53,330 bases of DNA from a virus, in IMG/VR virus record IMGVR_UViG_3300022685_000036, positions 1 to 53,330 of that record. The stretch is one strand, 5' to 3'. The translations under genes and the position numbers were made by a program. Below, one piece after another: positions 4,174 through 45,311 of the stretch (positions are counted from its first letter, which is position 1; each line of letters starts with the position of its first letter). The notes under the pieces were generated by a model, which worked only from the letters and a program-made list of their open reading frames with translations, ran no database searches and was not told the DNA's origin.

Positions 4174-4203
4174 GAAGGTTGTGCTCTTGTGTCAGATTCT
4201 GTT

Positions 4204-4231: not shown

Positions 4232-4241
4232 CAGCCTACGA

Positions 4242-6509: not shown

Positions 6510-6522
6510 TGCTCTGTACCTA

Positions 6523-6639: not shown

Positions 6640-6647
6640 ACGATTTC

Positions 6648-8686: not shown

Positions 8687-8721
8687 TATGTCGCGAATGG
8701 CAGGCAGTATGAGTTCCCATG

Positions 8722-11955: not shown

Positions 11956-12245
11956 GACCATTCTCCGTCAACAGGAAAACCATCCACCCGCACCGCCACC
12001 CGCTCCTCCGGCGGGCGCCCACCGCCTTTCTCGGCGTGGCGGCGATTGTCGCACGTCGGGCACAACGTGCGCAGATTCGTCAGATCCAGCATCCGCGAGG
12101 GGTCAACCCGCACAGGCACAATGTGATCCACCCGCGCGGCTTTCCACCCGCTCACGTCCGCCCCGCACCACACGCACCGGTACCCGTCGCGGCGCAACGC
12201 CGCGCGCCGCAGCGCGGGCCAGCGCGGTCCGTAATCAGCGCTCAC
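11952..12245 (-). CDS. HNH endonuclease
   Basis: The 97-residue protein has a complete HNH module: two zinc Cys pairs (CVWC near residue 24, CPTC near 63) around the ARVDHIVPVRVDPSR histidine strand and the NLRTLC helix, ending with NRRHAEKGGGR. Phage HNH proteins nick DNA during packaging or act as free-standing homing nucleases. Packaging HNH genes normally sit beside terminase; this one sits upstream of primase, so a replication or homing role is equally possible. Confidence 0.85.
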   Translation of the reverse strand: MSADYGPRWPALRRAALRRDGYRCVWCGADVSGWKAARVDHIVPVRVDPSRMLDLTNLRTLCPTCDNRRHAEKGGGRPPEERVAVRVDGFPVDGEWS

Positions 12246-12474
12246 AGATTCTGTACTCCATGCTGGAGCCTGGAACGAGAGTTTGAAAGAACCGCAGAGC
12301 TGCTTCTGCTGCTTCTGCTGCTTCTGCTGCTTCTGCTGCTTCTGCTGTCTCTTCCGTTCTTATGTCTTCCCACTCGGTCCAGCCATTTTCCCAGCTGTGA
12401 TGCACACCGTTGTAGCACCTTCGCATGGGGTCTGCATTGATGATGGTCGGCTTTCTGCTCTGCAACACGAACAT
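12235..12474 (-). CDS. Small protein with Glu-Ala-Ala repeats
   Basis: The 79-residue frame ends 11 bp inside the HNH gene. Residues 12-40 contain VHHSWENGWTEWEDIRTEE, followed by an (EAA)5 helix encoded by a 9-bp DNA repeat, then a short tail FFQTLVPGSSMEYR. Start options are MFVLQSRK (12474) or MRRCYNGV (12426). The DNA repeat makes the length prone to change. Frames across the repeat on the other strand and phase give only low-complexity Cys/Phe or Ser/Arg. Function unknown. Confidence 0.5.
   Translation of the reverse strand: MFVLQSRKPTIINADPMRRCYNGVHHSWENGWTEWEDIRTEETAEAAEAAEAAEAAEAALRFFQTLVPGSSMEYRICER
12299..12343. repeat. 9-bp microsatellite (GCTGCTTCT)5
   Basis: Five perfect copies of GCTGCTTCT lie in tandem, with a decaying sixth copy. 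The 9-bp period keeps the reading frame of the leftward gene, adding or removing Glu-Ala-Ala units without frameshift. Such repeats usually vary by replication slippage. Confidence 0.9.
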
Positions 12475-13429: not shown

Positions 13430-13894
13430 ATGAAAAAATTCACCGACACCTACAACCGCATGGTCGGCGAGGCCGCCAGCTTGAACGAGACCAGCGATTG
13501 CGCCATCAAGGCGATCGCCATCACCACCGGCACACCTTACAAAGAGGTGCACGCCCGCGCAGCAGCCCTCGGCCGCAAGAACGGCGAAGGCACGCATTGG
13601 CACATCATCACCCGCATCATCCACGATCTCGGCCACGAGCTCAAGACCACTAAACCAGCCGACTTCATCAACCAGTACCCAGGCGTGCACAAGAATTTGA
13701 AGAGCGTCACCACGCATCATCCTGCGCGATTCAACAAGGTGTGGCGTGACGGCAAAATGTACATCTTCAATTGCCGCGGCGGCCACCACGTGGCGGCGGT
13801 GGTGAACGGCGAGCTGCACGACTGGACTGTCGGCACCGCGTCACGGTGCATCGGCATCTACGAGGTGGTCAAGAAAGGTGAAAATAATTGTTGA
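13430..13894 (+). CDS. Papain-like cysteine-protease-fold protein
   Basis: The start MKKFTDTYNR follows the CTGGAGACTGAAG site. The 154-residue protein shows a papain/C39-like layout: a Cys at the head of a helix, TSDCAIKAIAITTG (C24), a Gly-rich middle, and GGHHVAAVVNGELHDW near the end, giving His (H119/H120) and Asp (D131) candidates. Phage members of this fold are known as small peptidases or transglutaminase-like proteins, some inactive. It is the first rightward early gene behind a strong promoter, the usual place for host-takeover or anti-defence proteins. That role is inference. Confidence 0.65.
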   Translation: MKKFTDTYNRMVGEAASLNETSDCAIKAIAITTGTPYKEVHARAAALGRKNGEGTHWHIITRIIHDLGHELKTTKPADFINQYPGVHKNLKSVTTHHPARFNKVWRDGKMYIFNCRGGHHVAAVVNGELHDWTVGTASRCIGIYEVVKKGENNC

Positions 13895-13919
13895 CTCCAA
13901 GAACAAAATCAGCGATAAT
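13891..13919 (+). promoter_or_regulatory. Early promoter 2 with long leader hairpin
   Basis: TTGACT (13891-13896), 17-bp spacer, GATAAT (13914-13919). The -35 box overlaps the stop codon of the upstream gene. The leader GTTGAGGGG-GCGTT-CCCCTCAAC (13928-13950) is the longest hairpin of the family, with 9 or more base pairs. It feeds the small gene at 13975. Confidence 0.88.
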
Positions 13920-14229: not shown

Positions 14230-14418
14230 GTGATCAATAACATAAACGACTTTTTGCGCGAGGCGGCATATTCACTTGCGAACAGAGACATTGAGCGCAT
14301 CGACGAGCTTCGAGAGATAGTCCGAGGCTGGGCTCAAACGGAAGAAGAAGCGAAAGCTCAACTAGAGCTGCTCGAAGAAATCGCCCTGGCGATCGAAGTA
14401 ATTCCTGGCGGTGTTTAA
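14230..14418 (+). CDS. Small acidic helical protein (GTG start)
   Basis: The 62-residue protein starts with GTG, 5 bp after an ACTGGAGGCTGAC site. Its sequence (AYSLANRDIERIDELREIVR; EEEAKAQLELLEEIALAIEV) is strongly acidic and helical, probably a coiled-coil dimer. Its stop overlaps the ATG of the polymerase gene (TAATG), so both are translated together; it may be a small partner of the polymerase fragment. Unknown family. Confidence 0.7.
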   Translation: MINNINDFLREAAYSLANRDIERIDELREIVRGWAQTEEEAKAQLELLEEIALAIEVIPGGV

Positions 14419-17318
14419 TGACTGATCCACGCCTCGCCCACGCCCTGAAAGCCAGCTCCCGCGCGCGGGAGCTTTTTGCCGAGGCCGAGCGCCGCGGCAT
14501 CACGCTGCCGCCCCCGCGGTACCGCTTCGACAAGACGGTCCCCGACATCGACGTCGACATCAGCCCCTCGGGGCGCGACAGCCTCTTCGCCTACCTCAAG
14601 CACCGGTACGGCCACGTGGCACGCATCGGCAACCTCAGCACGATGCAGCCGCGTTCCGTGCTGGCCCGGTGCGGAAAGGCGCTCGGCATCCCCGAGCAGG
14701 CCACCCGCGCGGTGCGCAGCGTGTTGGTGGAGTACAGCTCGGGCGACTCGCGGTACGGCAGGGCGTTGGAAGACACCCTGCAGCACACCGACCCCGGCCA
14801 AGCGTTCATGCGCAAGCACCCGGAGATGGCGATGGTGTACGCGGCGGAGCAGTCCGCCAGCCACACCTCGGTTCACGCCGGAGGGGTGGTCGTCTCGCCG
14901 ACCCCGCTGACCAACTACGCCACCGTCCGCGACGGCGTGCTCCAGATGGAGAAGTACGGCGCGGAGAACCTGAACCTGCTGAAGATCGACATGCTAGGGC
15001 TGCGCACGCTGGCGGTGCTGGAAGAGCTGGCGCCGCCCGAGTCCTACTACCAGCTGCCGCTCACGGATCAGCGGGCATTTGACGTCATCAACGCTGGTCA
15101 CTTCTCCGGCATTTTCCAGTTCGAGGGCGACGCCCAGCGGCGCGTCTCCGCGCAGCTCCACATCACCGATTTCCGCACCATGGACCACATCACCGCCCTC
15201 TCCCGGCCCGGACCGCTGGGCGGCGGCGCGGCCAACCACTACATCAACCGCTCTCGCGGCTCGGAGCCGGTCACGTACCGCCACCCCAGCATGGCGGCGT
15301 ACCTCGGCGACACGCTAGGCGTGGTGCTGTACCAGGAGCAGGTCATGTCGATCTGCCGCGAGATCGGCGGTTTTAACTGGTCCGACATCACCGAGATCCG
15401 CCGCGCCATGAGCAAGCGCAAAGGCGAGGAGTGGTTTGCGCAGTGGGGCGCCAAGTTCGCCGCGGGCGCCGCGCGGCTCCACGGAATGACGCGCGAGGAC
15501 GCGGACGCCATCTGGGACGAGATCAACTCGTTCGGATCTTATGGAATGAACAAGTGCGTCACCGCTAACACTCGCATCAAGCTCTGTCACCCCAACCAGT
15601 GGCTTGGCAAGAACCCCACGATCGAGGAGCTGTACCTTCACTACGAGCGCCCAGGCCGCAAGGGTCGCCCAGCCAAGCTGCTCAGCTTCGACGGCGAGCG
15701 AGCCAAGCCCGCCGTGGTCAAGCGCATCCACAAAACAGGCGTGAAGCGGTGCATCGAGCTGGTCACAGCCGACGGGCGCAGCATCGAGCTGACGCCGGAC
15801 CATCGGCTGCTGATCAACGGCCAGTGGGCAACCGCCGGCACCGCACAGCTGGGCGACGAGCTGACGGCGGTCAGCCGCAAGCGGTGGATTAAGGACGGTC
15901 CAAACGCTGGGCGCGGCAAAGCGTGGCGCAAAGGTCGCGCTGGCGCTGGGATGTACGACGTTGGCCATGGCCGTTCCATGTTCGAAGCTGCATTCCGCCG
16001 CGAGCGCGCATCCGACCCCTGCGACGACTGTGGCAAGGCGAAGCAGCGCATGGAAGTTCACCACAACGACTTCAACCACGGCGCAGACCGCCCAGACGAT
16101 CTGGCTTGGCTTTGCTCCGGCTGCCACAAGCAACGCCACATGGACGCCGGCAACTGGCTAACCCCATACGCACGCGGTTGGACGCTCGACCACCCAGCCA
16201 TCATCACCGAGATCCGCGAAGCGGGCTACCAGGAGACGTACGACATCGAGATGGCCGAGGAGCCGCACAACTTCGTACTGGCCAACGGCATCGTCTCCCA
16301 CAACAGTCACACCGTCTCCTACGCCATCATCAGCTACTGGTGCGCGTACCAGAAAGCCACCCAACCCCTAGAGTTTGCCGCCGCGCTGCTCCGCCACGCC
16401 AAGCACGAGGAGCAGGCGGTGGAGCTGCTGCGGGAGCTGGACGAGGAGCAGCTGCCGGTGGTGATGTTCGACATCAAGCGTTCCCAACCCGATTGGTCCG
16501 TGCAGGACGGCCAGCTGGTGGGCGGCTGGCGGAACCTCAAAGGGGTCGGACCCAAACTCGCCGAAAAGTACGCGGCAAATCCCCCGGCCGAGCTCCCCGC
16601 CAGACACGTGCTGCGGTTCCCCTCGATTCACGCCACGCACGAGCGGTGGGGCGCGTTGTACGACCTGTCCGCCGCGCAACGCAGCGCCGAGCTGAGGTGG
16701 GTGCAGCGCGGCACGCCGCTCAAAGCCGCCGCCGCCGCCGCCGCCGCCGCGCCGGTGCTGCAGCCCGTGCGCGAGCTGGCCGATTTGGCGGACGACGAGA
16801 TCGCCACCGTTGTCTGCCTGATCCGCCGCCGGGACCGCCGCGACGAGAACGAAGAGGTGCGGCGCAAGCGGCGCGGCGGAGACTTTCTGCCCGGCCAGAC
16901 GAAGTTCCTTGACGTGTTCGTGACCGACGACAGCACCAAGCGCCCGGTGATCGTGCGGTTCAAGAGCCGGGTGTGGGACAAATACGGTCGGCGAATTGCC
17001 GACCATGCAGTTGACGATGAAGACTGGTTGTTGGTGCACGGCCGATGGCTTAAGCAGTTCAATATGCTGCTGGCGGCACGTGCGGTTTGCCTCACCAAAC
17101 CTGGACTCATCGGCAATGTCCCTAACTCTTCCCGAGCAGCGCCTTTGGGCGCGGCTCCAGAAGCAGATCCACGGCATGTACACGCGGGTGGAGAACATCG
17201 CAGAGTCGGGAACCCCGGACGTGTGGACGGCGCGAGCGGGGTGGATCGAACTCAAGGTACCGCGCCGCGCCGCGCGGGCGGCAACCCCAATCCTTGGGCC
17301 AGGAACCCTTCGCGTTGA
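14418..17318 (+). CDS. DNA polymerase III alpha, C-terminal half (palm acid residues to OB), with intein
   Basis: This 966-codon gene starts just before the palm motif VPDIDVDIS, whose D45 and D47 match the two metal-binding Asp of DnaE. The third, D191, is in LLKIDMLGLRTL. Fingers follow, interrupted by an intein (residues 380-629) after SYGMNK. Extein resumes at SHTVSYAIISYWCAYQK, then a helix-hairpin-helix (LKGVGPKLAEKY), an Ala-rich linker, and an OB-like domain ending near CLTKPGLIGN. The PHP domain and the GRGS part of the palm are missing here and are encoded at 23488-24525. The last 67 residues overlap the nuclease gene out of frame and are low-complexity. This is the catalytic half of the phage replicase. 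Confidence 0.9.
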   Translation: MTDPRLAHALKASSRARELFAEAERRGITLPPPRYRFDKTVPDIDVDISPSGRDSLFAYLKHRYGHVARIGNLSTMQPRSVLARCGKALGIPEQATRAVRSVLVEYSSGDSRYGRALEDTLQHTDPGQAFMRKHPEMAMVYAAEQSASHTSVHAGGVVVSPTPLTNYATVRDGVLQMEKYGAENLNLLKIDMLGLRTLAVLEELAPPESYYQLPLTDQRAFDVINAGHFSGIFQFEGDAQRRVSAQLHITDFRTMDHITALSRPGPLGGGAANHYINRSRGSEPVTYRHPSMAAYLGDTLGVVLYQEQVMSICREIGGFNWSDITEIRRAMSKRKGEEWFAQWGAKFAAGAARLHGMTREDADAIWDEINSFGSYGMNKCVTANTRIKLCHPNQWLGKNPTIEELYLHYERPGRKGRPAKLLSFDGERAKPAVVKRIHKTGVKRCIELVTADGRSIELTPDHRLLINGQWATAGTAQLGDELTAVSRKRWIKDGPNAGRGKAWRKGRAGAGMYDVGHGRSMFEAAFRRERASDPCDDCGKAKQRMEVHHNDFNHGADRPDDLAWLCSGCHKQRHMDAGNWLTPYARGWTLDHPAIITEIREAGYQETYDIEMAEEPHNFVLANGIVSHNSHTVSYAIISYWCAYQKATQPLEFAAALLRHAKHEEQAVELLRELDEEQLPVVMFDIKRSQPDWSVQDGQLVGGWRNLKGVGPKLAEKYAANPPAELPARHVLRFPSIHATHERWGALYDLSAAQRSAELRWVQRGTPLKAAAAAAAAAPVLQPVRELADLADDEIATVVCLIRRRDRRDENEEVRRKRRGGDFLPGQTKFLDVFVTDDSTKRPVIVRFKSRVWDKYGRRIADHAVDDEDWLLVHGRWLKQFNMLLAARAVCLTKPGLIGNVPNSSRAAPLGAAPEADPRHVHAGGEHRRVGNPGRVDGASGVDRTQGTAPRRAGGNPNPWARNPSR
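15555..16304 (+). mobile_element. Intein with HNH homing endonuclease domain
   Basis: The 250-residue insertion splits the polymerase between SYGMNK and SHTVSYA. Splicing residues are all present: Cys1 in block A (CVTANTRIKL), block B with TPDH (RSIELTPDHRLLIN), block F/G (ETYDIEMAEEPHNFVLANG then IVSHN), and Ser as +1 extein residue. Between the halves lies an HNH domain with zinc Cys pairs (CDDC, CSGC) and the catalytic MEVHHNDFN. It should splice itself out and could home into intein-free alleles. HNH is a less common intein nuclease than LAGLIDADG. The insertion point is an invariant part of the fingers, as expected for inteins. Confidence 0.92.
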
Positions 17319-17517
17319 CCAGCGGAAGTGGTTTCGCGCGGCGGCGCACGCCGGTGCCGAGGCTTGGGTGGTGGCGGAGCTGGACGGCAAGTCGCTCTAC
17401 GCCGCCATCCCGGCGGCAGACGTTCCCGCCGCTCACACGCTTCCCGGCACCGAGGCGCGCGCGCGGTGGGGCCACCCGACGCTCAAGTCGCTGTGGGCGG
17501 CAATCGCAAAAAGTTGA
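17116..17517 (+). CDS. VRR-NUC-like (PD-(D/E)XK) nuclease
   Basis: The start MSLTLPEQRLW at 17116 is chosen because the nuclease fold begins there; the first part of the longer frame is polymerase sequence in another phase. The 133-residue protein shows the restriction-fold core: E30 in the first helix, then GTPDVW (D35) and the strand GWIELKVP (E45-x-K47). A helix with LRVDQRKWFRAAAHAGAEAW and the strand WVVAEL follow, the VRR-NUC pattern. Family members resolve branched DNA. It overlaps the polymerase frame by about 200 bp. Confidence 0.82.
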   Translation: MSLTLPEQRLWARLQKQIHGMYTRVENIAESGTPDVWTARAGWIELKVPRRAARAATPILGPGTLRVDQRKWFRAAAHAGAEAWVVAELDGKSLYAAIPAADVPAAHTLPGTEARARWGHPTLKSLWAAIAKS

Positions 17518-17526
17518 AGAAAGTTG

Positions 17527-17555
17527 TTGCTTTCTGAACAGAAATCAGCGATAAT
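17527..17555 (+). promoter_or_regulatory. Early promoter 3 with 5' leader hairpin
   Basis: TTGCTT (17527-17532), 17-bp spacer with the TTCTGAACAGAA palindrome, GATAAT (17550-17555), then AGTCCTACGTTGAGGGG. The leader hairpin is GGGG-AACG-GCCCC (17569-17581). The ribosome-binding site here departs from the family (CTGGACTAACAGGATAC). It drives the gene at 17615. Confidence 0.88.
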
Positions 17556-17614
17556 AGTCCTACGTTGAGGGGAACGGCCCCGAAGCCAAAACTGGACTAA
17601 CAGGATACACGAAA

Positions 17615-17851
17615 ATGAAAGGCACCATCCGCAACATGAACACCGTCGCACGGGAGCTCTCCGCCGGTCGCGCCGCCGCCAAAAAGGCTGCTAAGAGCTT
17701 TGCAGTTCGCTCTTTGACCAAAGCCGGTACAGTCTCAAAGGTCGCTGATAGCCCCATGAACTTGACCGACACCTTGGAGCAAGCCGAGGCGCGTAAGGCC
17801 ATGATGGAGAAAATGAACCCCGGCCGCTCTTTCGTGATCGTCAAGATCTGA
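17615..17851 (+). CDS. Small basic protein, unknown
   Basis: The 78-residue protein is Lys/Arg/Ala-rich in its first half (AGRAAAKKAAKSFAVRSLTK) and ends with a helix and a strand (EARKAMMEKM; SFVIVKI). The composition suggests a nucleic-acid-binding or otherwise basic helical protein. It is transcribed from its own promoter and followed by a junction stem-loop and another promoter. No family is recognised. Confidence 0.7.
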   Translation: MKGTIRNMNTVARELSAGRAAAKKAAKSFAVRSLTKAGTVSKVADSPMNLTDTLEQAEARKAMMEKMNPGRSFVIVKI

Positions 17852-17861
17852 CTCGTACCCT

Positions 17862-17875
17862 CGCCAAGGACGGCG
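17862..17875 (+). repeat. Junction stem-loop CGCCAAGGACGGCG, copy 2
   Basis: An identical 14-bp element directly precedes promoter 4, so here it sits at the 3' end of the upstream transcript rather than before a ribosome-binding site. A run of A follows. Confidence 0.75.
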
Positions 17876-17885
17876 CAAAAACTTG

Positions 17886-17914
17886 TTGACTTCTGCGAAG
17901 CACTAGGCGATAAT
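17886..17914 (+). promoter_or_regulatory. Early promoter 4, without leader hairpin
   Basis: TTGACT (17886-17891), 17-bp spacer, GATAAT (17909-17914). The spacer starts TTCTG like the others but lacks the second half of the palindrome. The conserved leader hairpin is missing: CACCGTGTC leads straight to AACTGGAGACTGACA and the ATG at 17939. Confidence 0.82.
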
Positions 17915-17938
17915 CACCGTGTCAACTGGAGACTGACA

Positions 17939-18376
17939 ATGCAACCCCAGCTCAATTTCGAATCAATGTCCGGACCCGAGCTTGTCGAGTGGTACAACAA
18001 GCACGCCCACAAGCCTGTCACCAAGTTCGCTTCCCGCGCCAAAGGCATCGATCGATGCTGGAAGCTGCTGGACGCGATGCGGTTCGACGCTCCGGACGAA
18101 CAGCAAGAGACAGCAACCATGAACGAAGAAACCCAAATCAACACTCCTGACCCGGATCGCAGCGCAGCGATGGCCACCAGCTGGCAGGACCCCGAGGTCC
18201 GCGCCAAGCGTGCCGCTCGCCACGCCATCACCGTCAACGGCGAAACGTACAAGTCCATGTACAAGGCATTCGAGGTGCTGGGCCTGGATCTGAAGGACCA
18301 CGCCAAGGTGCGGATGCAGTGCGTTCAGAACGGCACCGTCGAGTACGAAGGCCACACCTTCAAGCTCGCCAGCTAA
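17939..18376 (+). CDS. Two-part small protein, possible DNA-binding modules
   Basis: The 145-residue protein has an N-terminal helical domain, ELVEWYNKHAHKPVTKFASR with KGIDRCW, a pattern (ELVxxYN, KKFxSRxxGxxR) common in phage and host proteins and probably DNA-binding. A polar linker follows (residues 55-85). The C-terminal part (ITVNGETYKSMYKAFEVLGL to GTVEYEGHTF) resembles the small helix-turn-helix modules of homing endonucleases (NUMOD/IENR type). No nuclease domain is present. A transcription or replication accessory role is possible. Confidence 0.7.
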   Translation: MQPQLNFESMSGPELVEWYNKHAHKPVTKFASRAKGIDRCWKLLDAMRFDAPDEQQETATMNEETQINTPDPDRSAAMATSWQDPEVRAKRAARHAITVNGETYKSMYKAFEVLGLDLKDHAKVRMQCVQNGTVEYEGHTFKLAS

Positions 18377-18415
18377 CCGAGCACTCTCTTGGTTCATGGG
18401 CACTGCGCCAAGGTA

Positions 18416-18437
18416 AGGAAAGTCAGCGACCTTTCCT
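18416..18437 (+). repeat. Leader stem-loop with diverged junction motif
   Basis: A diverged junction element CGCCAAGG (18406-18413) is followed by AGGAAAG-TCAGCGAC-CTTTCCT, a perfect 7-bp stem with an 8-nt loop. AACTGGAGATTGAAG and the ATG at 18489 follow. It replaces the usual short hairpin at this junction. Confidence 0.55.
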
Positions 18438-18488
18438 AGAGTTGTCGCTAGCAGGCCCACCATCAACCAAACTGGAGATTGAAGCGTT

Positions 18489-19265
18489 ATGAGAGCCTAC
18501 ACCGAAGACGACCTCCGCAGCGCTGCGCCGGCGGTTTTCGCAGAGGCCCCCGCCACCAACGTCAGCGGCAAGTACCAGTTCGTGAGCACCATCGACTTGG
18601 TGCGCGAGTTCTGGGACCGCGACTACGTCGTGGTCGACGCCGCGCAGGCCAGCGTCCGCAAGAACAGCTCCCGCGACTCGCTTCACGCCCTCCACATGCT
18701 GCGGCTCCAGCCGGCCAACGCGCCGCAGGAGCTTGACGGCCTGTTCCAGCAAATCCTGCTCAGCAACAGCCATCGCGGCCACAACGCGCTGAATTTCGGT
18801 GTCGGCATCTACCGCTTGGTCTGCACGAACGGAATGGTGGTCGGCAAGGCCGAGTCGCACTATCGGGCGCGGCACACGGGCAACGTCCATCAGACGATCG
18901 ACGAAGCGCTGCCGCACATCTTCCGTTCCCAGGAGCGGGCGCTGGAGCGCGTGGAGCGTTGGGCCGATATCGAGCTGACGCCTGCCCGCATCGAGCGCTT
19001 CGCCGACGAAGCCGCCGCGCTCCGCTCCGGGCGCTCGCCGCACGGCTACGACCTCGCCGACGTGCTGCGCGTGCGCCGCGCCGAGGACGAGGGCAACTCG
19101 CTGTGGCGCGTGTTCAACCGCGTGCAGGAGAACCTGACGCAGGGCGGCGTTCAGACAACCACCGCCAACGGCCAAACGCGCACCACCCGTCCTCTGCGCG
19201 GCATCGGACTCAACATGCGGTTCAACGCTGATCTCTGGGATCTGGCCGACGCGGTCGTAGCTTAA
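18489..19265 (+). CDS. DUF932 family protein
   Basis: The 258-residue protein matches the DUF932 phage/plasmid family. The family marks are FVSTIDLVREF near the start, ALNFGVGIYRLVCTNGMVV in the middle (residues 96-120), and RPLRGIGLNMRFNADLWDLA at the end. Members are common in large plasmids and phages and their function is not known. It has the shared leader and ribosome-binding site and belongs to the operon leading to ThyX. Confidence 0.82.
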   Translation: MRAYTEDDLRSAAPAVFAEAPATNVSGKYQFVSTIDLVREFWDRDYVVVDAAQASVRKNSSRDSLHALHMLRLQPANAPQELDGLFQQILLSNSHRGHNALNFGVGIYRLVCTNGMVVGKAESHYRARHTGNVHQTIDEALPHIFRSQERALERVERWADIELTPARIERFADEAAALRSGRSPHGYDLADVLRVRRAEDEGNSLWRVFNRVQENLTQGGVQTTTANGQTRTTRPLRGIGLNMRFNADLWDLADAVVA

Positions 19266-19282
19266 CCCCACAACTAAACCCC

Positions 19283-19298
19283 GCGCCAAGGACGGCGC
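19283..19298 (+). repeat. Junction stem-loop CGCCAAGGACGGCG, copy 3
   Basis: The longest copy of the junction element: GCGCC-AAGGAC-GGCGC, 5-bp stem. AACTGGAGAATGCAGCA and the ATG at 19318 follow directly. Confidence 0.8.
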
Positions 19299-19317
19299 CC
19301 AACTGGAGAATGCAGCA

Positions 19318-20217
19318 ATGCCAATTGCCCGCATAATCGGCGCAGGCTACTCCGGCCTGATCGCGGGGTTTGCGTTCCCGCAAATCCCGATCATCGAATC
19401 CGCCCCCGAACCAATCGAGCGCCACAAGGCTGTGCTGCGGTTCCGCACCGACCGCATCTCCGCGCTGACCGGCGTCGAGTTTCGGCGCGTGAACGTGCGC
19501 AAGGCAATCTGGTCCCACGGGCGCGAAACCGCGCCAACGGTCGCGCTGGCCAACCAGTACAGCATCAAGGTGCTGGGCCGCGTGGAGAACGACCGTTCGA
19601 TCTGGAATCTGGAACCGGTGGAGCGTTTCATCGCTCCGACCGACTTCTACTTCCAGCTCGTGGATCGGATGGCGGGTCGTATCAATTGGAATTTGAGTTG
19701 GGATTTCACAACGGCGTACGGGCCTGTGATCTCCACTGTGCCGCTGCCAACTCTGATCAAGATCAAGGGTCTTCACACAGGTCTGCACTTCGCCTCCGAG
19801 CCTATCGTCGTCGAGCGGTGTCATGTTCCGAAGTGCGACGTGTTTCAAACCATCTACTTCCCCGACCCCGAACTAGAGGTTTTTCGCGCGTCGATCACCG
19901 GCTCGATGCTGATTATGGAGTTTCGCGGTGAGCCCGCCATGGACGACTACCGCGCGGTGGCGGCGGCATTCGGGGTGGACCCAGAGATGCCGGGAACGCG
20001 CCACAATCAGCGGTACGGCAAGATTGCGCGCATAGCGGACGACGCCGCCCGCCGCGCGCTGTTGCATCGGCTGACCGCCGACCACGGCATCTACTCCCTC
20101 GGGCGGTTCGCCACGTGGCGCAACATACTGCTGGACGACCTGCCGCACGACTGCGCGGTGATCCGCCGCATTGAATCTGGCGGCGCGTACGCCGCCCAAC
20201 TGGAGGCTGCACGATGA
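19318..20217 (+). CDS. FAD/NAD-binding flavoprotein, ThyX neighbour
   Basis: The 299-residue protein starts with a dinucleotide-binding fold (MPIARIIGAGYSGLIAGFAF, GxGxxG). It ends with a second FAD-contact motif, YSLGRFATWRNILLDDLPHD, like the GRFxxWxxxxMD signature of UDP-galactopyranose mutase and amine oxidase-type flavoenzymes. The middle is not recognised and is shorter than in those enzymes. Its stop overlaps the ThyX start by 4 bp, so the two are made together; ThyX is also FAD-dependent. It may act on the product of ThyX or serve another redox step. The substrate is unknown. Confidence 0.72.
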   Translation: MPIARIIGAGYSGLIAGFAFPQIPIIESAPEPIERHKAVLRFRTDRISALTGVEFRRVNVRKAIWSHGRETAPTVALANQYSIKVLGRVENDRSIWNLEPVERFIAPTDFYFQLVDRMAGRINWNLSWDFTTAYGPVISTVPLPTLIKIKGLHTGLHFASEPIVVERCHVPKCDVFQTIYFPDPELEVFRASITGSMLIMEFRGEPAMDDYRAVAAAFGVDPEMPGTRHNQRYGKIARIADDAARRALLHRLTADHGIYSLGRFATWRNILLDDLPHDCAVIRRIESGGAYAAQLEAAR

Positions 20218-20975
20218 AAGTGACGCTGAAACGCTACACCCCCGACGCGCTCGACCTGCTGCTCGCGACCAAGGAGACCCGCCTGGGCGGCACGGATGAC
20301 CCTGCCCGCTGGTCCGAGGAGCGAAAGGCTGAGCATCTGCAGTACATGCTCGGCACCATCAAGTCCAGCTGGGAGTTCGTGGATTACGTCTTCCACATCA
20401 GCGGCGTCTCCCGTGCCTTCACTCATCAGCTGGTCCGCACCCGCCAGGGCAGCTACGCTCAGGAGAGCCAGCGCACGGTGGACGCGCGCGACAACGGCGT
20501 GGTCCTTCCGGAATTCGAAACGGCGGCTGGAGAGCTTGCATTCACGGCGATCACGGACAGGATCTTCCGAGCTTACGCGGAGATGATCGACGCGGGCGAA
20601 AAGCCGCAGAACGCTCGGGCCATCCTCCCGACCGCAACCGCCACGTCGATCTGGGCGAAGTTCAACCTCCGCACCCTCAGCGACATGGCTCGTGTGCGGC
20701 TCTGCACCCGCACCCAGGGCGAGTACCAGCGGGTGTTCCGAGAGATGTGCGACGAAGTTGTTGCGGTCCACCCCTGGGCCGAGCCGTTTCTGGCGGTCGA
20801 GTGCGTGGCGAGCGGCACCTGCGCGTTCCCCAATTATGGGCCGGACCACTGCCCGATCTACCACCCCTCGCTCGACCGCACCGAGGTGAAGCGCCAACAG
20901 CGTGAGCGGTTCTTCACCGCGCCCATCCATGAAGCCGCTCCGCAGCGAGGCAAAGACAGCCGGAGTATTGGATAA
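20214..20975 (+). CDS. thyX: Flavin-dependent thymidylate synthase ThyX, variant motif
   Basis: The 253-residue protein makes dTMP (or a derivative) from dUMP using FAD and methylene-tetrahydrofolate. The signature RHRx7S is present as RTRx7S: HQLVRTRQGSYAQES (R75, R77, S85), with Thr for the usual His. The second conserved block is NARAILPTATATSIWAKFNL then RTLSDMARVRLCTRTQGEY, where family members have NxRxLxHFxxLR. The C-terminus (residues 195-253) is longer than usual and has a Cys/His-rich GTCAFPNYGPDHCPIYHPS segment. The altered motif may change the chemistry, for example towards hydroxymethylation; this is speculative. Confidence 0.88.
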   Translation: MKVTLKRYTPDALDLLLATKETRLGGTDDPARWSEERKAEHLQYMLGTIKSSWEFVDYVFHISGVSRAFTHQLVRTRQGSYAQESQRTVDARDNGVVLPEFETAAGELAFTAITDRIFRAYAEMIDAGEKPQNARAILPTATATSIWAKFNLRTLSDMARVRLCTRTQGEYQRVFREMCDEVVAVHPWAEPFLAVECVASGTCAFPNYGPDHCPIYHPSLDRTEVKRQQRERFFTAPIHEAAPQRGKDSRSIG

Positions 20976-21328
20976 TGAAGATGAACGTGCCGTTGCACAA
21001 AATATTCCGTTACAACAAGAGCCTCGCGGCCAAGCTCCGCGAAGGCTACCCCGTGATGATCCAGCCGGACGAGACGGGGGACATCGTTGTTCGCGCTGCA
21101 GATCCGGACACAGGCGTTTATGATTCCATCGGCCAGATCCCGGCGGACAGCGCAGACGCCGACCCGAAGTTCGCCCACTACCCGGCGCTGCAGATGGTGC
21201 AACAAATCGCCGAGCGGCATAACCAGTGGCCGATCGAGTCCAAGCTCACCAAGCATTTCGTGCTTCACAAGAAGGAATACGCCGAGCCGTGGCTTGCGAT
21301 GCAGGTGGAAATTGATACTGGAGAATGA
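20975..21328 (+). CDS. Unknown protein after ThyX
   Basis: The 117-residue protein starts on the ThyX stop (TAATG). It has a strand-rich N-terminal half (YPVMIQPDETGDIVVRA) and a helix HYPALQMVQQIAERHNQWP, then ESKLTKHFVLHKKEYAEPW. It sits between nucleotide-metabolism genes. No motif is recognised. Confidence 0.7.
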   Translation: MKMNVPLHKIFRYNKSLAAKLREGYPVMIQPDETGDIVVRAADPDTGVYDSIGQIPADSADADPKFAHYPALQMVQQIAERHNQWPIESKLTKHFVLHKKEYAEPWLAMQVEIDTGE

Positions 21329-21331
21329 ACG

Positions 21332-21739
21332 ATGATTCTGATTGACATTGACGGCTGCATCAGCGACGACCGTTGGCGGTTGCCGCTTATTGATCACACC
21401 GCCCAAGACCCCTGGCACGACTACCACGTCGCCGCCGAGCACGACGAGCCCGCCAATCTGCACGTGATCACCGAGCCCGCCATCGCGCTCACAGCGATGC
21501 CGGCGCGATACGCGGAGATCCGGCGGCGGTGGCTGCGGCAGCACGCCCCAGCTGTTGTGCGGGTTGTGATGCGACCGGACGGCGACCATTCGTCGTCGCC
21601 GATCCTGAAGCGCAACATGCTCCGCTTCGTGCGCGGCCAGTTCCCCAGCGAGCGCATCCGCGCGGCCTACGACGACCGCGCCGACGTGGTGAGCATGTAC
21701 CGCCGCGCCGGGATCAACGCGGAGGTGTTGGCGGTATGA
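21332..21739 (+). CDS. HAD-family phosphatase-like protein
   Basis: The 135-residue protein begins with the HAD motif I, MILIDIDGCISDDRWR (D5 and D7), followed by DPWHDYHVAAEHDEPAN, as in the phosphatase half of T4 polynucleotide kinase-type proteins. The Lys of motif III may be in ILKRNMLRF, and motif IV in YDDRADVVSMY. It may remove phosphates from nucleotides or DNA ends. The ACTGGAGAATGAACG site lies before the start; the stop overlaps the next ATG (ATGA). Confidence 0.75.
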   Translation: MILIDIDGCISDDRWRLPLIDHTAQDPWHDYHVAAEHDEPANLHVITEPAIALTAMPARYAEIRRRWLRQHAPAVVRVVMRPDGDHSSSPILKRNMLRFVRGQFPSERIRAAYDDRADVVSMYRRAGINAEVLAV

Positions 21740-22023
21740 GCAGCGATCCCCTTCAGAACCTGGAGCGCGCCGCCGCCACTTTCCGGGAGCGCAACGCGCA
21801 GTACGGCGATTCCTGGCGGCGATTCGGAACGGTTGCGGCGGCGCTGTTTCCCGACGGCGTCACCATCCGCACCGAGGCCGACTGGGCGCGGTGGGGCGTG
21901 CTGTTCCACGTGATCGACAAGCTCAGCCGCTACGCCGGAGCGCCGCACCGCGATTCGGCTCACGACCTGATCAACTACGCTGCGATGTTGGAGGCACTGA
22001 CCAACGATGTGGGCAGCGGTTGA
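21736..22023 (+). CDS. DUF1599/DUF6378-like nucleotide-associated protein
   Basis: The start MSSDPLQNLERAAATF at 21736 overlaps the upstream stop. The 95-residue all-helical protein carries FRERNAQYGDSWRRFG and HVIDKLSRYA then DSAHDLINYAAMLEAL. This is the YGDSW, K-x-x-R, and DxxxDLxNYA pattern of small phage proteins linked to nucleotide metabolism and modification. It lies between the HAD phosphatase and the exonuclease. Biochemical function is not established. Confidence 0.68.
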   Translation: MSSDPLQNLERAAATFRERNAQYGDSWRRFGTVAAALFPDGVTIRTEADWARWGVLFHVIDKLSRYAGAPHRDSAHDLINYAAMLEALTNDVGSG

Positions 22024-22501
22024 CTTCGAAACCACCGGCCTGTTGCTCCACCCGCAGGCGCAAGCGCCACAGCCGCGCGCTGTGGAGTTTGCCGCCGTGC
22101 GGGAGGACGGCGAGGAGCGGGTGTGGCTGTTCGATCCTGGCGTGCCGCTGCCGCCCGAGATCATCAAGATCACCGGCATCACTCCCGGCATTCTCGACGG
22201 CGCGCCGCCGTTTCAGGAGCTGTGGCCGGAGATCGACATCTTCATGCCCGAGGAGGTCTGGGCGCACAACGCTGCGTTCGACAGCGGCATCCTCCACGCT
22301 GAGCTGGCGCGGTTCGGCGGCAACGACGCGCACCGCTGGCGGTGCACGGTCGAGGAGTACGCCCCGGAGTGGGGTTACCGCCCGCGGCTGATCCATCTGT
22401 ACGAGTGGATGTTCGGAGAGCCGCTCGCCCAGGAGCACCGCGCGTTGAGCGACACGCGGGCGCTGGCAAAAATCGTTCGCACGATGAAAGAAAGTTGTTG
22501 A
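22007..22501 (+). CDS. DnaQ-like 3'-5' exonuclease (DEDDh)
   Basis: The 164-residue protein has the three exonuclease motifs: VDFETTG (D6, E8), AHNAAFDSGILHAEL (D92) and HRALSDTRALAKI (H144, D149), the DEDDh set. This is the fold of the Pol III epsilon proofreading subunit. In a phage whose replicase is a DnaE-type polymerase with a degenerate PHP domain, it is the natural proofreader. It overlaps the upstream gene by 17 bp. Promoter 5 overlaps its last codons. Confidence 0.88.
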   Translation: MWAAVDFETTGLLLHPQAQAPQPRAVEFAAVREDGEERVWLFDPGVPLPPEIIKITGITPGILDGAPPFQELWPEIDIFMPEEVWAHNAAFDSGILHAELARFGGNDAHRWRCTVEEYAPEWGYRPRLIHLYEWMFGEPLAQEHRALSDTRALAKIVRTMKESC

Positions 22502-22526
22502 CTTCTGAACAGAAACGCGCGATAAT
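22498..22526 (+). promoter_or_regulatory. Early promoter 5 with 5' leader hairpin
   Basis: TTGACT (22498-22503), 17-bp spacer with TTCTGAACAGAA, GATAAT (22521-22526), AGTCCTACGTTGAGGG. The leader hairpin is GAGGG-AACGA-CCCTC (22538-22552), followed by GGCGACCTGAACTGGAGACTGACGAA. It has the best -35 box together with the full palindrome and is closest to the family consensus. Confidence 0.9.
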
Positions 22527-22578
22527 AGTCCTACGTTGAGGGAACGACCCTCGGCGACCTGAACTGGAGACTGACGAA

Positions 22579-22713
22579 ATGAAAAACATTGAAACGGCGT
22601 ATGTAGAAATCGCAACTCGAGAGCTCATGAAACCGATTTGCATGTATTACTGGTACGAGGGGCATCGGCGCGGATTCTGGATGAACATCAAGAGTCACCG
22701 GACGCGCTGGTAA
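22579..22713 (+). CDS. Very small protein, 44 residues
   Basis: The ATG at 22579 follows AACTGGAGACTGACGAA, the family ribosome-binding site, behind its own promoter and hairpin. The product starts MKNIETAYVEIATRELMKPI and is rich in aromatic and basic residues (CMYYWYEGHRRGFW). The strong expression signals support a real gene despite its size. After the stop, CCCGC-TTC-GGCGGG may form a weak stem. Function unknown. Confidence 0.65.
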   Translation: MKNIETAYVEIATRELMKPICMYYWYEGHRRGFWMNIKSHRTRW

Positions 22714-22765
22714 ACAACCACCCGCTTCGGCGGGTTCATCGCCGCCTACAACGAGTTCATTGTTG

Positions 22766-22794
22766 TTGACTCACGAACAGAAATCAGCGATAAT
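22766..22794 (+). promoter_or_regulatory. Early promoter 6 with 5' leader hairpin
   Basis: TTGACT (22766-22771), 17-bp spacer containing only the AACAGAAA half-site, GATAAT (22789-22794). The leader hairpin AGGG-AACAT-CCCT (22807-22819) is shorter. It drives the gene at 22851 and presumably the operon with the N-terminal polymerase half. Confidence 0.88.
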
Positions 22795-22850
22795 AGTCCT
22801 ACGTTGAGGGAACATCCCTTGGCGATCGAAACTGGAGAGGCAACTGACCG

Positions 22851-23027
22851 ATGACCAAGAACAACTTCACCTACCGCGAGACTTCTGAGAAGATCATCAG
22901 CGATCTGCGCACCCTTCCGGATGTGGTCCGCAGCTCCTGCGGCAAATACACCTCGTCGCCGCTCTACTGGATCATCCTGAGCAACGCTCTGGTCGGCACC
23001 AAGGTCGAGTTCTACAACGTAAAGTAG
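22851..23027 (+). CDS. Small protein, 58 residues
   Basis: The ATG at 22851 lies behind promoter 6 and an AACTGGAGAGGCAACTGACCG site. It encodes MTKNNFTYRETSEKIISDLR, then a Ser/Tyr-rich segment ending SNALVGTKVEFYNVK. The short helix-plus-strand architecture is not recognised. The next gene has its own CAGGAGACTGAAG site. Confidence 0.62.
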   Translation: MTKNNFTYRETSEKIISDLRTLPDVVRSSCGKYTSSPLYWIILSNALVGTKVEFYNVK

Positions 23028-23071
23028 CAACACCGCAGCCGGGAGTCGCCCTCCCGGCAGGAGACTGAAGA

Positions 23072-23491
23072 ATGCAGACATTCCTCCCCTTCCCCAGCTA
23101 CATCCGCAGCGCCCAGGCGCTGGACTCCCGCCGGCTCGGCAACCAGTGCTACCGCGAGACGCTGACGCTGTTGCGCGGCGGCTGGCCGAACCATCCCGCC
23201 TCCCGTATGTGGCGCGGCTACGAGCACGAGCTTGCGGCCTATGGGCTCACGCTCGCGTTCGAGATGCGCCGCCGGGGCGGCTGGCGCCCCGAGGTCACGG
23301 ACCGCTGGATCAACTTCTACTCCGCCGCCATGCGTGAGCTGCCGTGGTCGCCGCGGCCGCCTTGGCTCGGCGACCCGGAGTTCCACCGCGCGCACCAGAG
23401 CAACCTGATCCGCAAAGACCCGGAGCACTACGGGCGGCTGTTTCCCGGCGTGCCGGACGACCTGCCTTACATCTGGCCGGAGACCGCATGA
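23072..23491 (+). CDS. Pyrimidine-dimer glycosylase-like (MSMEG_6728 family) protein
   Basis: The 139-residue protein starts MQTFLPFPSYIRSAQALDSR then RLGNQCYRE, followed by NHPASRMWRGYEHELAAYG. This is the typical N-terminal block of the MSMEG_6728 family, which is related to T4 DenV-type base-excision enzymes. The conserved Thr near the N-terminus and the Arg/Tyr-rich block fit. It may repair or process phage DNA. It overlaps the polymerase N-half gene (ATGA), tying repair and replication expression together. Confidence 0.78.
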   Translation: MQTFLPFPSYIRSAQALDSRRLGNQCYRETLTLLRGGWPNHPASRMWRGYEHELAAYGLTLAFEMRRRGGWRPEVTDRWINFYSAAMRELPWSPRPPWLGDPEFHRAHQSNLIRKDPEHYGRLFPGVPDDLPYIWPETA

Positions 23492-24525
23492 TCCCACAAC
23501 TCAGAGTCCGCACCGAGTACACGTTCAAGCATGTGTACGGCAAGCTGCCGCAGGTCGCTGCGGCGATCTCCGCCGCGCCGGCGGCGGCTATCGTGGACGC
23601 CGAGTCCACCTGGGGCCACGAGCGTTGGGCGTCAGCGCTGAAGCCGCACGGCGTGCGCCCGATGTACGGCGTGGCTGTCGAGGTGCCGTTTGCCGACGGC
23701 CGCAAGCCGCACGGCTGGGTGCTGGCGCGCGACGACATCGGCGAGCTGTACCGGTTCGCCTCCGACGCCGACCCGGATTGGCGCGCGGCGGAGGGGCGTC
23801 TGCTGCGGTTCGCCGGGGCGGCGCTCACCGACCCTGAGGAGTTTGATTACGTTGACGTCAACCCGGCTTCCGCTCGTGCAGCGCTGCGCGCGGTGAAGCT
23901 GGCGCGGCGCACCGGCCGGCCGCTCGTGGTCACGAACCTCAACCGCTGGCCAGCCCCCGAGCACGAGAACGTGGCGCTGGCGCTGTGGGACAACCGCGCT
24001 GTGCGGTACGCTGGACACATCCTCAGCGACGACGAGCTGCGGCGGGCGCTGGTGCCGGAGGTGATGGATGCGGCGACGTTCGACCGCGCCTCGCAGGCCA
24101 CCGCCGACGCCGCCGCGCTGAGCACCGCGCAGCTGCTCCCCGCACCGCAGCTGGAAGTGCCCGGCGACCTGGACGCCGAAATCGAGGCTGGTCGTCAGCT
24201 GCGCATCCGTCAAGGGATGCCGTGGAACGAAGAGTACGCTGCGCGGCTGGCGTCGGAGCGAGAGACGATCGCCGACAAAGGATTCGAGAGCTACTTCATC
24301 GTTGTCGGCGACCTGATGCGCGAGGCCAAGCGGCGAGGCATCATGACCGGAGCGGCACGCGGCAGCGCCGCCGGGAGCCTGGTCAGCTACGTGCTGCAGA
24401 TCACCGAGGTCGACCCCATCAAGCACAATCTGCTGTTCGAGCGGTTTATGGACATAAACCGTGGCGGCTGGTTCTTCACAGACGAGTATCTGGACGAGGT
24501 GGAGGAGCTGCTCAAAAAAAGTTGA
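23488..24525 (+). CDS. DNA polymerase III alpha, N-terminal half (PHP to Gly-Ser palm motif)
   Basis: The start MIPQLRVRTEYTFKHVYG overlaps the upstream stop. The 345-residue protein matches the DnaE N-terminus: a PHP domain (residues 1-70) whose metal-binding HxH is lost (RVRTEYTF; later DAESTWGHERW), a connecting region, then the palm start GFESYFIVVGDLM, GAARGSAAGSLVSYVLQ (288-304) and VDPIKHNLLFERFMDIN. DnaE normally continues here straight into the PDxDxD aspartates; instead the protein ends after 20 more residues. Those aspartates start the gene at 14418. The two proteins must join to form one active site. No split-intein sequence is visible at either end. Confidence 0.9.
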   Translation: MIPQLRVRTEYTFKHVYGKLPQVAAAISAAPAAAIVDAESTWGHERWASALKPHGVRPMYGVAVEVPFADGRKPHGWVLARDDIGELYRFASDADPDWRAAEGRLLRFAGAALTDPEEFDYVDVNPASARAALRAVKLARRTGRPLVVTNLNRWPAPEHENVALALWDNRAVRYAGHILSDDELRRALVPEVMDAATFDRASQATADAAALSTAQLLPAPQLEVPGDLDAEIEAGRQLRIRQGMPWNEEYAARLASERETIADKGFESYFIVVGDLMREAKRRGIMTGAARGSAAGSLVSYVLQITEVDPIKHNLLFERFMDINRGGWFFTDEYLDEVEELLKKS

Positions 24526-24533
24526 AAAAGTTG

Positions 24534-24562
24534 TTGCCTTCGTGAACAAAAAGAGGGATAAT
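24534..24562 (+). promoter_or_regulatory. Early promoter 7 with 5' leader hairpin
   Basis: TTGCCT (24534-24539), 17-bp spacer (no palindrome, AACAAAAA half-site remnant), GATAAT (24557-24562). The leader hairpin is GAGGG-AACGG-CCCTC (24574-24588). It begins 9 bp after the polymerase stop. Confidence 0.86.
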
Positions 24563-27409: not shown

Positions 27410-28816
27410 ATGCCACTTCCCGCCCTCTACCGCCATCAGGCCGAAGCGCTCGCCGCCTACGGCGACCGCGTCGCGTTTGCCTACCTCTGGGAACAGGGGA
27501 CCGGCAAGACAGTGATCGCGTTGGCTGAAGCCGCAGCAGCCCTCGATTCCGGCCACACTACCAACGTTCTCGTTGTTGCGCCAAAAGGCGTCCACACCAA
27601 CTGGGTAAACCGCGAGATCCCCAAGCACACGCCGCATATCGACGCTGTGGCCTGGTCCTCCCACGCGCGGGATCGCCGCGCGGCGGCGGACGCGACGCTG
27701 TTCGCGATCAACTACGAAGCTCTCGCCACCAAAGCGGGGTTCGCCGCTGCGCAGAACTTTGTGCGGTCCGGGCCGACGTTGCTGATCGCGGATGAATCTT
27801 CATACATTAAATCGCCATCCGCCATCCGCACACGCAACACGCTAGCGCTGGCGCGGCTATGCCCGGTGCGGCGCATTCTCAACGGCACCCCAATCGAGAA
27901 CGCGCCTATTGACCTGTTCTCACAGTTCGAGCTGCTGCAGCCCGGTGCGCTCGGATTTCGGAAGCACTCTGATTTCATCGCCAACTACGCGAAGTTGCTT
28001 CCGGCGGATCATCCAATCGTGGTTGCGGCTGTAGCAAGATCGCGCTGCAACTTCGCGCCGCAGATCATCGAGCGCGACGCCCGTGGAAGACCAATCTGGC
28101 GAAACCTCGACCATCTCCGAGACCGCGTCCGGAATTGGTCATCGCGGTTGCGGAAAGAGGATTGCTTGGATTTGCCGCCGAAAGTGTACGAGCGTTCTTA
28201 TTTCTCGCTACCGGCGGAGGCTCGTCGCCATTACAACGCGCTGAAATCGGAACACGCCACAGAGATCGAAGAAGCGCTTGTGACCGTCACCCCGCTCACC
28301 GCGCTAACGAAGCTGCAGCAGGTCACATCCGGATTCATCAACGTTGATGGCGAGCCGCGCTATCTTCTGGAGAACAACCCTCGAATCGCAGCCGTCCAGA
28401 GCATTGTCGATTCGTTGCCGGCCGACCGTTCCGTTATCCTCTGGGCGCGGTTCCGCGAGGAGATCGAAGCGCTGTGCGCCGCGCTCCCAGGCGCCGTGCG
28501 GTACGACGGGTCAACCCCTGCGGCTGACCGCGAGCGAGCTGTAGACGCCTTCCAGAGCGGCGCTGCGCGGTTCTTCGTCGGCAACCCGTCGGCGGGTGGG
28601 CGAGGGCTGACGCTGACGCGGGCGAGCGTGGTGATTTACGTCTCGAACTCGTTCAGCTACGGGCACCGCGCACAGTCCGAGGACAGGGCGCACCGCATAG
28701 GGCAAGACAGATCGGTCACCTACATCGATCTGATTGCTGAAGACACAATCGACGAGAAAATCGTCGACGTACTGACAGATAAGCAAAATGTTGCAAGAGA
28801 CATCATCGATGGATAA
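27410..28816 (+). CDS. SNF2-family DEAD/H helicase
   Basis: The start MPLPALYRHQAEALAAYG at 27410 follows TTGGAGTCTGACG. The 468-residue protein has all SF2/SNF2 motifs: the Q-type start, Walker A WEQGTGKT (around 27-34), motif II DESSYIKS, motif III RRILNGTPIEN, and in the second domain GGRGLTLTRASVVIYVSN, then RAHRIGQDRSVTYIDLI. It is a compact, phage-type SNF2 translocase likely acting in recombination or replication restart. It overlaps the YqaJ exonuclease gene, with which it probably forms a recombination pair. Confidence 0.92.
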   Translation: MPLPALYRHQAEALAAYGDRVAFAYLWEQGTGKTVIALAEAAAALDSGHTTNVLVVAPKGVHTNWVNREIPKHTPHIDAVAWSSHARDRRAAADATLFAINYEALATKAGFAAAQNFVRSGPTLLIADESSYIKSPSAIRTRNTLALARLCPVRRILNGTPIENAPIDLFSQFELLQPGALGFRKHSDFIANYAKLLPADHPIVVAAVARSRCNFAPQIIERDARGRPIWRNLDHLRDRVRNWSSRLRKEDCLDLPPKVYERSYFSLPAEARRHYNALKSEHATEIEEALVTVTPLTALTKLQQVTSGFINVDGEPRYLLENNPRIAAVQSIVDSLPADRSVILWARFREEIEALCAALPGAVRYDGSTPAADRERAVDAFQSGAARFFVGNPSAGGRGLTLTRASVVIYVSNSFSYGHRAQSEDRAHRIGQDRSVTYIDLIAEDTIDEKIVDVLTDKQNVARDIIDG

Positions 28817-44857: not shown

Positions 44858-44875
44858 TTTCTGCTCGTTTAATGT

Positions 44876-44904: not shown

Positions 44905-44912
44905 ATGCTAAG

Positions 44913-45269: not shown

Positions 45270-45311
45270 ACACATCTCCGTCAAGTACGCACGTACCTGT
45301 GCAAAATACGC

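What the first reader, a model, noticed from the sequence alone, without database searches (positions are those of the whole stretch)
14418..24525. Replicative DnaE polymerase split into two distant genes inside the palm domain, in reversed order
Seen: the gene at 23488-24525 ends soon after the Pol III alpha palm block GAARGSAAGSLVSYVLQ ... LLFERFMDIN. The gene at 14418-17318 starts about 40 residues before VPDIDVDIS, the catalytic Asp motif that follows directly in normal DnaE. Together they cover DnaE without a visible gap, but they are separate genes, about 6 kb apart, with the C-half first. Known: cyanobacterial DnaE is also split, but is rejoined by a split intein and cut elsewhere. Here no split-intein halves are visible at the break, so the active site must assemble from two chains. 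The PHP HxH motif is also lost, and a DnaQ-like exonuclease nearby can supply proofreading.
Basis: partly seen in the sequence, partly recalled or inferred. Interest (0 to 1): 0.92.

Follow-up and report, generated by a model that had tools for sequence, protein, structure and literature searches.

The report
Phage replicase split across two genes
In this phage genome the catalytic heart of the DNA-copying enzyme (a DnaE/Pol III alpha polymerase) is encoded by two separate genes 6 kb apart, one of which also carries a self-splicing intein, whereas all examined relatives of this clade keep it as one gene, so the enzyme very probably has to be put together from two protein chains.

Summary
One Pfam profile (PF07733) is cut cleanly in two: positions 10-98 lie in the gene at 23488-24525, positions 99-260 in the gene at 14418-17318. 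The seam corresponds to E. coli DnaE 396|399, between the Gly-Ser loop and the catalytic PDIDxD strand. On 65 related viral contigs the same two parts are one continuous gene. Synteny shows that the N-half kept the ancestral locus (ThyX-DnaQ-dnaE-helicase) and that the C-half, with the ORF behind it, was moved about 9 kb upstream. Both halves have their own starts, coupling and promoter-like sites, and coding-biased extensions (20 and 40 aa), and keep 88-96% of the clade's conserved residues and all catalytic Asps. Most likely mechanism: intein splicing, then non-covalent assembly of a two-chain palm. Split phage Pol III alpha is known (group 2.2 jumbo phages, Iyer 2021); I checked that Atu_ph07 and RaK2 are cut at the same seam, but they are tiny, divergent accessory enzymes. 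This one is an independent, derived fission of a full-size PHP-DnaE. It rests on one contig, and complex formation is untested.

The parts
23488..24525 (+). N-half of DnaE: degenerate PHP-like domain plus first part of palm, 345 aa
   Evidence: PF07733 10-98, E 2.5e-31; model pLDDT 89.5, Foldseek best hits Pol III alpha
24349..24381 (+). Gly-Ser nucleotide loop GAARGSAAGSL (residues 288-298)
   Evidence: G288, R291, G292, S293, G296, S297, L298 invariant in 43 relatives
24463..24522 (+). 20-aa C-terminal tail of the N-half after the last homologous residue R325; predicted helix 332-344, acidic
   Evidence: absent in all unsplit relatives; codon model: 0 of 376 wrong-frame windows score as high; helix in model, pLDDT about 65
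14418..17318 (+). C-half of DnaE: 40-aa extension, catalytic palm strand, thumb, fingers, interrupted by an intein
   Evidence: PF07733 99-260 and DNA_pol3_finger; Foldseek best hit 2hnh
14418..14537 (+). 40-aa N-terminal extension of the C-half, basic, predicted helix 4-26 of low confidence
   Evidence: no homologue in relatives; coding by codon model, 0 of 340 wrong-frame windows as high; pLDDT 33-41
14541..14558 (+). PDIDVD catalytic motif (D45, D47)
   Evidence: nearly invariant in 41 relatives
14988..14990 (+). third catalytic Asp D191 (KIDMLGL)
   Evidence: invariant in 41 relatives
15555..16304 (+). cis intein (250 aa) between GMNK and SHTVSYA
   Evidence: Pfam Intein_splicing E 5.1e-10; starts with Cys, ends HN before Ser; relatives L003 and L005 carry one at the same point
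16020..16139 (+). HNH endonuclease domain inside the intein
   Evidence: Pfam HNH E 3.8e-4 (just under curated cut-off) and several PHROG HNH families
14230..14418 (+). 62-aa ORF whose TAA stop overlaps the C-half ATG (TAATG, translational coupling)
   Evidence: sequence at 14416-14420
17116..17517 (+). small ORF (phrog_2165) behind the C-half; same position behind dnaE in relatives L016, L019, L021
   Evidence: phrog_2165 E 1.2e-15; weak matches directly after dnaE
22007..22501 (+). DnaQ-like 3'-5' exonuclease
   Evidence: RNase_T E 9.7e-17; conserved upstream neighbour of dnaE
23072..23491 (+). gene overlapping the N-half start (ATGA), pyrimidine dimer glycosylase family
   Evidence: PF03013 E 2.5e-13
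27410..28816 (+). SNF2-type helicase, ancestral downstream neighbour of dnaE
   Evidence: Pfam SNF2-rel_dom/Helicase_C; synteny
13891..13919 (+). promoter-like repeat upstream of the C-half transcription unit
   Evidence: TTGACT-17-GATAAT, repeat family D1/D2
22766..22794 (+). promoter-like repeat upstream of the N-half transcription unit
   Evidence: TTGACT-17-GATAAT, repeat family D1/D2
24534..24562 (+). promoter-like repeat directly behind the N-half
   Evidence: TTGCCT-17-GATAAT, repeat family D1

Best explanation
The phage's only detected replicative polymerase is a C-family (DnaE/Pol III alpha) enzyme whose gene was broken in evolution between the Gly-Ser loop and the catalytic PDIDxD strand. 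The segment encoding the C-half, together with the ORF behind it, moved about 9 kb upstream, while the N-half stayed at the ancestral dnaE locus. Each half became a free-standing gene with its own start, coupling partner and nearby promoter-like site. Shown by sequence: the fission, unsplit relatives, synteny, coding nature of both extensions, retention of all catalytic residues. Inferred: the C-half precursor splices out its cis intein; the spliced C-half then associates non-covalently with the N-half, so that the palm closes with the Gly-Ser loop from one chain and D45, D47 and D191 from the other; the new acidic tail and the new basic extension may help docking; the separate DnaQ-like protein supplies proofreading.
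For: Complementary profile halves. On 65 related viral contigs the two parts run on in one frame, 0-3 residues apart, as in all 23 matches in bacterial or MAG contigs. The N-half locus is syntenic with dnaE of relatives and the C-half is out of place. Both halves fall in the same small clade with L015 as nearest neighbour. Conserved residues kept: 41/45, 57/65, 24/25. Start/stop overlaps, promoter-like repeats and coding bias in both extensions. N-half and C-half models fold and match Pol III alpha. Precedents: jumbo phages cut at the same seam; phage 25 gp43A/43B co-purify and polymerise, and split Aeh1 NrdA is fully active (PMC2988022).
Against: Only one contig shows the arrangement; no sibling genome was found. 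No complex prediction could be run; extension 1-40 has pLDDT below 50. Retention of conserved C-half residues (88%) and terminal branch lengths (rank 42/43 and 40/41) are at the divergent end of the clade, so some relaxation is possible. The record is incomplete, so a second polymerase outside it is not excluded.
Confidence: 0.75

Rival explanations
1. Assembly artefact: pieces of one gene misplaced by the metagenome assembler.
For: Single contig; near-identical promoter repeats of about 75 bases could confuse assembly.
Against: The repeats lie about 65 nt from the N break and about 570 nt from the C break, so swapping segments at repeats would not restore the gene: 20 new codons plus a stop, and two ORFs plus 40 new codons, would still separate the halves. 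Both extensions are coding in frame. Two misjoins at exactly complementary positions would be needed.
Confidence: 0.07
2. Decayed polymerase: the halves are remnants and the phage uses the host replicase or a second polymerase beyond the record ends.
For: Record incomplete: contig L078 continues beyond window position 1. Somewhat long branches.
Against: Catalytic Asps and Gly-Ser loop intact, 88-96% of conserved residues kept, open frames with codon bias, intein splicing motifs intact, primase, helicases and exonuclease genes present. No polymerase was found in the other contigs of the species that I could search.
Confidence: 0.11
3. The halves are rejoined covalently: trans-splicing by a split intron (RNA) or an unrecognised split intein (protein) at the seam.
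For: In Sextaecvirus staphylococcal phages and Lactobacillus phage Satyr, insertions, most with an endonuclease-type gene, interrupt dnaE at or within a few codons of LPD|IDID, close to this seam.
Against: No Rfam intron in the window at E<=1, although Rfam also missed the Sextaecvirus insertions. Both extensions look translated, are too short for standard intein halves and lack Cys/Ser at the start and HN at the end. The C-half has its own overlapping start.
Confidence: 0.05

Closest known systems
Split minimal Pol III alpha of group 2.2 jumbo phages (Iyer et al. 2021, PMC7824862; Atu_ph07, RaK2)
   Same: C-family palm encoded by two distant genes, cut between the Gly-Ser loop and the PDIDxD strand. 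Atu_ph07 N unit ends ..KYDLDFSEFLE; its C unit starts IMKNIPDIDIDF.
   Different: Those units are tiny (about 180-190 aa), very divergent, without a PHP domain, and accompany a family B polymerase; they are read as possibly ancestral. Here it is a full-size PHP-DnaE, the only polymerase seen, with unsplit sister phages and an intein in the C-half.
Unsplit dnaE of PB1/BcepF1/Wifcevirus/XcP1-type phages
   Same: Same family, neighbours (ThyX, DnaQ, helicase) and degenerate PHP motif.
   Different: One gene.
Cyanobacterial split DnaE (trans-splicing split intein)
   Same: DnaE encoded in two separated genes.
   Different: Cut downstream in the fingers and rejoined by split-intein halves; here the cut is in the palm and there are no intein halves at the cut. 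The window's cis intein sits close to the cyanobacterial position (from own knowledge of that site).
Aeromonas phage 25/44RR split gene 43 and Aeh1 split nrdA (PMC2988022)
   Same: Essential phage enzyme in two genes that reassembles without splicing; shown by experiment for phage 25 and Aeh1.
   Different: Family B polymerase or ribonucleotide reductase; pieces stay at one locus, separated by an endonuclease gene or an untranslated spacer.
Intervening-sequence-bearing dnaE of Sextaecvirus (RQ1, SEP9, PMBT8, PT1-1) and Satyr
   Same: dnaE interrupted at or within a few codons of LPD|IDID, close to the window's seam.
   Different: Pieces stay in order at one locus and are presumably RNA-spliced (SEP9 is annotated as a join).

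Membership tests
C-family polymerase (DnaE/Pol III alpha) | Complete palm profile with Gly-Ser loop and three catalytic Asp | tested here: met
   PF07733 10-98 plus 99-260 over the two chains; residues invariant or nearly so in relatives
C-family polymerase (DnaE/Pol III alpha) | Polymerase activity | not testable with these tools
   needs purified halves
Split Pol III alpha of group 2.2 jumbo phages | Two distant genes, cut between the NTP-binding and Mg-binding parts of the palm | tested here: met
Split Pol III alpha of group 2.2 jumbo phages | Minimal size without other Pol III domains, next to a family B polymerase | tested here: not met
   N-half carries the PHP-like domain, C-half carries fingers; no family B polymerase was found among the genes scanned, though not every ORF was scanned. 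Works like it, but is not a member of that lineage.
Cyanobacterial-type split DnaE | Split-intein halves at the break | tested here: not met
   Intein_splicing found only inside the C-half at residues 400-629; none at 325/41
Cis-splicing intein (inside the C-half) | N-terminal Cys, splicing domain, C-terminal HN followed by Ser | tested here: met
Genes-in-pieces by homing endonuclease insertion | Endonuclease gene between the pieces | tested here: not met
   no endonuclease ORF recognised directly at either seam; an HNH-like ORF is nearby at 11952-12245

The most novel reading that the evidence does not exclude
A full-size C-family replicase has secondarily become a two-chain enzyme by fission at the same few-residue seam as the jumbo-phage split Pol III alpha, with new interface extensions. 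That makes the palm of this family a repeatedly separable two-piece module and argues that split forms can be derived, not pre-LUCA relics.
Probability: 0.6. Interest if true: 0.75.

Novelty: new variant of a known kind. Interest (0 to 1): 0.64.

Why it matters
A polymerase palm is usually thought of as one indivisible catalytic domain. Here a presumed essential replicase seems to work with nucleotide-binding and metal-binding parts on separate chains, made from distant genes, one of them also needing intein splicing. Because close unsplit phages exist, the direction is clear (one gene became two). This bears on the proposal that split Pol III alpha of jumbo phages is an ancient state, and it gives a natural template for a conditional two-part polymerase. 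The same seam is also close to where intervening sequences interrupt dnaE in staphylococcal and lactobacillus phages, which links mobile elements to gene fission.

Tried and rejected
Searched viral contigs for the same species or siblings with both halves, both seam 24-mers, the phrog_4828 gene and the primase: no second genome with the split; terminase finds two same-species contigs that do not cover the locus. Prophage/genome scan: only unsplit DnaE. One genome hit (L084) seemed to match the N-half tail to residue 343, but it is an ordinary continuous DnaE. Rfam for split introns: nothing. An apparent frameshift near 17 kb was my own frame offset; the C-half frame is coding to about 17115. 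A first N-half tree from projected alignments was unresolved and was replaced by an IQ-TREE on MAFFT alignments. First-look suspicion that PHROG families starting at PDIDxD (phrog_12219) meant many natural two-gene splits: traced to dnaE genes carrying intervening sequences.

Full report
Observation. The two genes exist as described. The gene at 23488-24525 (345 aa) matches Pfam PF07733 at profile positions 10-98, and the gene at 14418-17318 (966 aa) matches positions 99-260 and the finger domain. No other copy of the family is in the 53,330-base record. Profile searches of PDB sequences place the end of the N-half at E. coli alpha residue 396 and the start of the C-half at 399, that is, between the helix ending LLFERF and the strand carrying the first two catalytic aspartates. 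This is a clean division of one domain, not a chance likeness.

Relatives L003 and L005 have an intein at the same FNK|SH point and L010 has two inteins close together, the second ending before SFNKSH; the nearest relative, L015, has none. The mature polymerase therefore comes from three coding segments. The loss of the PHP HxH motif is shared by the nearest unsplit relatives, so it is unrelated to the split. The DnaQ-like exonuclease at 22007-22501 is a conserved neighbour.

Relatives. 71 loci on 65 viral contigs that cover the seam have both parts in one frame with 0-3 residues between; closest is L015 (48% and 52% identity). All 23 matches in bacterial or MAG contigs are also continuous. 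Among 1,328 phage records with a DnaE match there are only 1,337 matching places, so separated halves are rare. None of the relatives has counterparts of the 20-aa tail or the 40-aa extension.

Direction of change. In relatives the order is phrog_4828 gene - ThyX-like gene - small genes - DnaQ - dnaE - helicase, with a small ORF directly behind dnaE in L016, L019 and L021. In the window the N-half sits in exactly this series, while the C-half with a similar small ORF (17116-17517, phrog_2165) lies about 9 kb upstream. Thus the C-half block moved. IQ-TREE on each half puts the window in the same small clade with L015 nearest for both, so the halves come from one ancestral gene. ('ThyX-like' rests on its motif, from own knowledge; it was not scanned.)

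Are both halves alive? The C-half start overlaps the stop of ORF 14230-14418 (TAATG) and the N-half start overlaps the preceding gene. Both transcription units have a repeated TTGACT-17-GATAAT promoter-like element upstream (eight sites found, 2.9 expected). Both extensions score as coding in frame; no wrong-frame window of 376 or 340 scored as high. Of positions at least 90% conserved in 40 phage representatives, the window keeps 41/45 (N), 57/65 (C before the intein) and 24/25 (C after it), near the low end of the relatives' range but far from decay. AlphaFold models: N-half pLDDT 89.5 with a short helix in the tail; C-half residues 1-379 pLDDT 80.6, its extension below 50. Foldseek finds Pol III alpha for both. 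By my own count of the letters the tail is net acidic and the extension net basic, which would suit docking; this is only suggestive.

Artefact? Even if segments were swapped at the promoter repeats, the halves would stay separated by new coding sequence, because the breaks lie about 65 and 570 nt from the nearest repeats. A misassembly would need two joins at exactly complementary positions. Still, only one contig shows the split, and the record is incomplete: L078, 99% identical over 8.7 kb, runs on beyond position 1 with tail-fibre-like genes.

Known cases. Iyer et al. (PMC7824862) reported a minimal Pol III alpha split into two proteins from distant genes in group 2.2 jumbo phages, beside a family B polymerase, and treated it as a possible ancestral form. 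I found the units in Atu_ph07 (N unit near 240.8 kb ending ..KYDLDFSEFLE; C unit near 58.3 kb starting IMKNIPDIDIDF) and the N unit in RaK2: the seam is the same. The window case is a separate event, in a full-size PHP-type DnaE that appears to be the phage's own replicase. Experimental precedents for active enzymes in pieces are phage 25 gp43A/43B and Aeh1 NrdA (PMC2988022).

A possible route. In Sextaecvirus phages (RQ1, SEP9, PMBT8, PT1-1) and Lactobacillus phage Satyr, insertions interrupt dnaE at or within a few codons of LPD|IDID, and other insertions (PG-2021_4, PT94, PT1-1) sit at SFS.P|H, near the window's intein site. Rfam does not recognise them, so calling them group I introns is inference, helped by the joined annotation of SEP9. 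Group I introns and inteins prefer conserved sites (PMC2814812). An endonuclease-bearing element at the seam could have started the fission; no remnant is visible in the window.

Verdict. Real, well supported as a gene fission; functional two-chain assembly is likely but untested; new variant of a known kind.

Noticed in passing
window 13346, 13887, 17523, 17879, 22494, 22762, 24530, 27327: Repeated promoter-like element (TTGACT/TTGCCT-17-GATAAT, often followed by a GTTGAGGG..CCCTC stem) between genes, probably the phage's own early promoters with a shared leader.
   Followed up: partly
L138, L139, L140, L141, L142 (phages RQ1, SEP9, PMBT8, PT1-1, Satyr): Insertions interrupt dnaE at or within a few codons of the PD|ID catalytic codons; in PG-2021_4 and PT94 (and PT1-1) another insertion sits near the intein site. 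Depositors annotate some as separate polymerase genes.
   Followed up: partly
L010 856-4959 and related loci L011-L014: Phage DnaE with two inteins close together, one before QYGAWC and one before SFNKSH.
   Followed up: no
window 17116-17318: The last 67 codons of the C-half overlap the phrog_2165 ORF in another frame; only the latter frame has coding bias. Possibly a lost stop codon or a small indel.
   Followed up: partly
window 1-8687 versus L078: Same-species contig L078 is 99% identical and continues beyond window position 1 into tail-fibre-like genes, with differences piling up toward position 1; the record is not a complete genome.
   Followed up: partly
window 37000-50000: Tail-gene region with much lower G+C (0.45-0.52 in most of it) and little third-position bias compared with the rest, suggesting a mosaic origin.
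   Followed up: no
window 11952-12245 (-) and 12299-12361: Free-standing HNH-like ORF, and a 9-base tandem repeat (GCTGCTTCT)n.
   Followed up: no
L109 (Staphylococcus phage MVC_VPHSA1): dnaE annotated as several fragments with internal stops, probably sequencing frameshifts.
   Followed up: no
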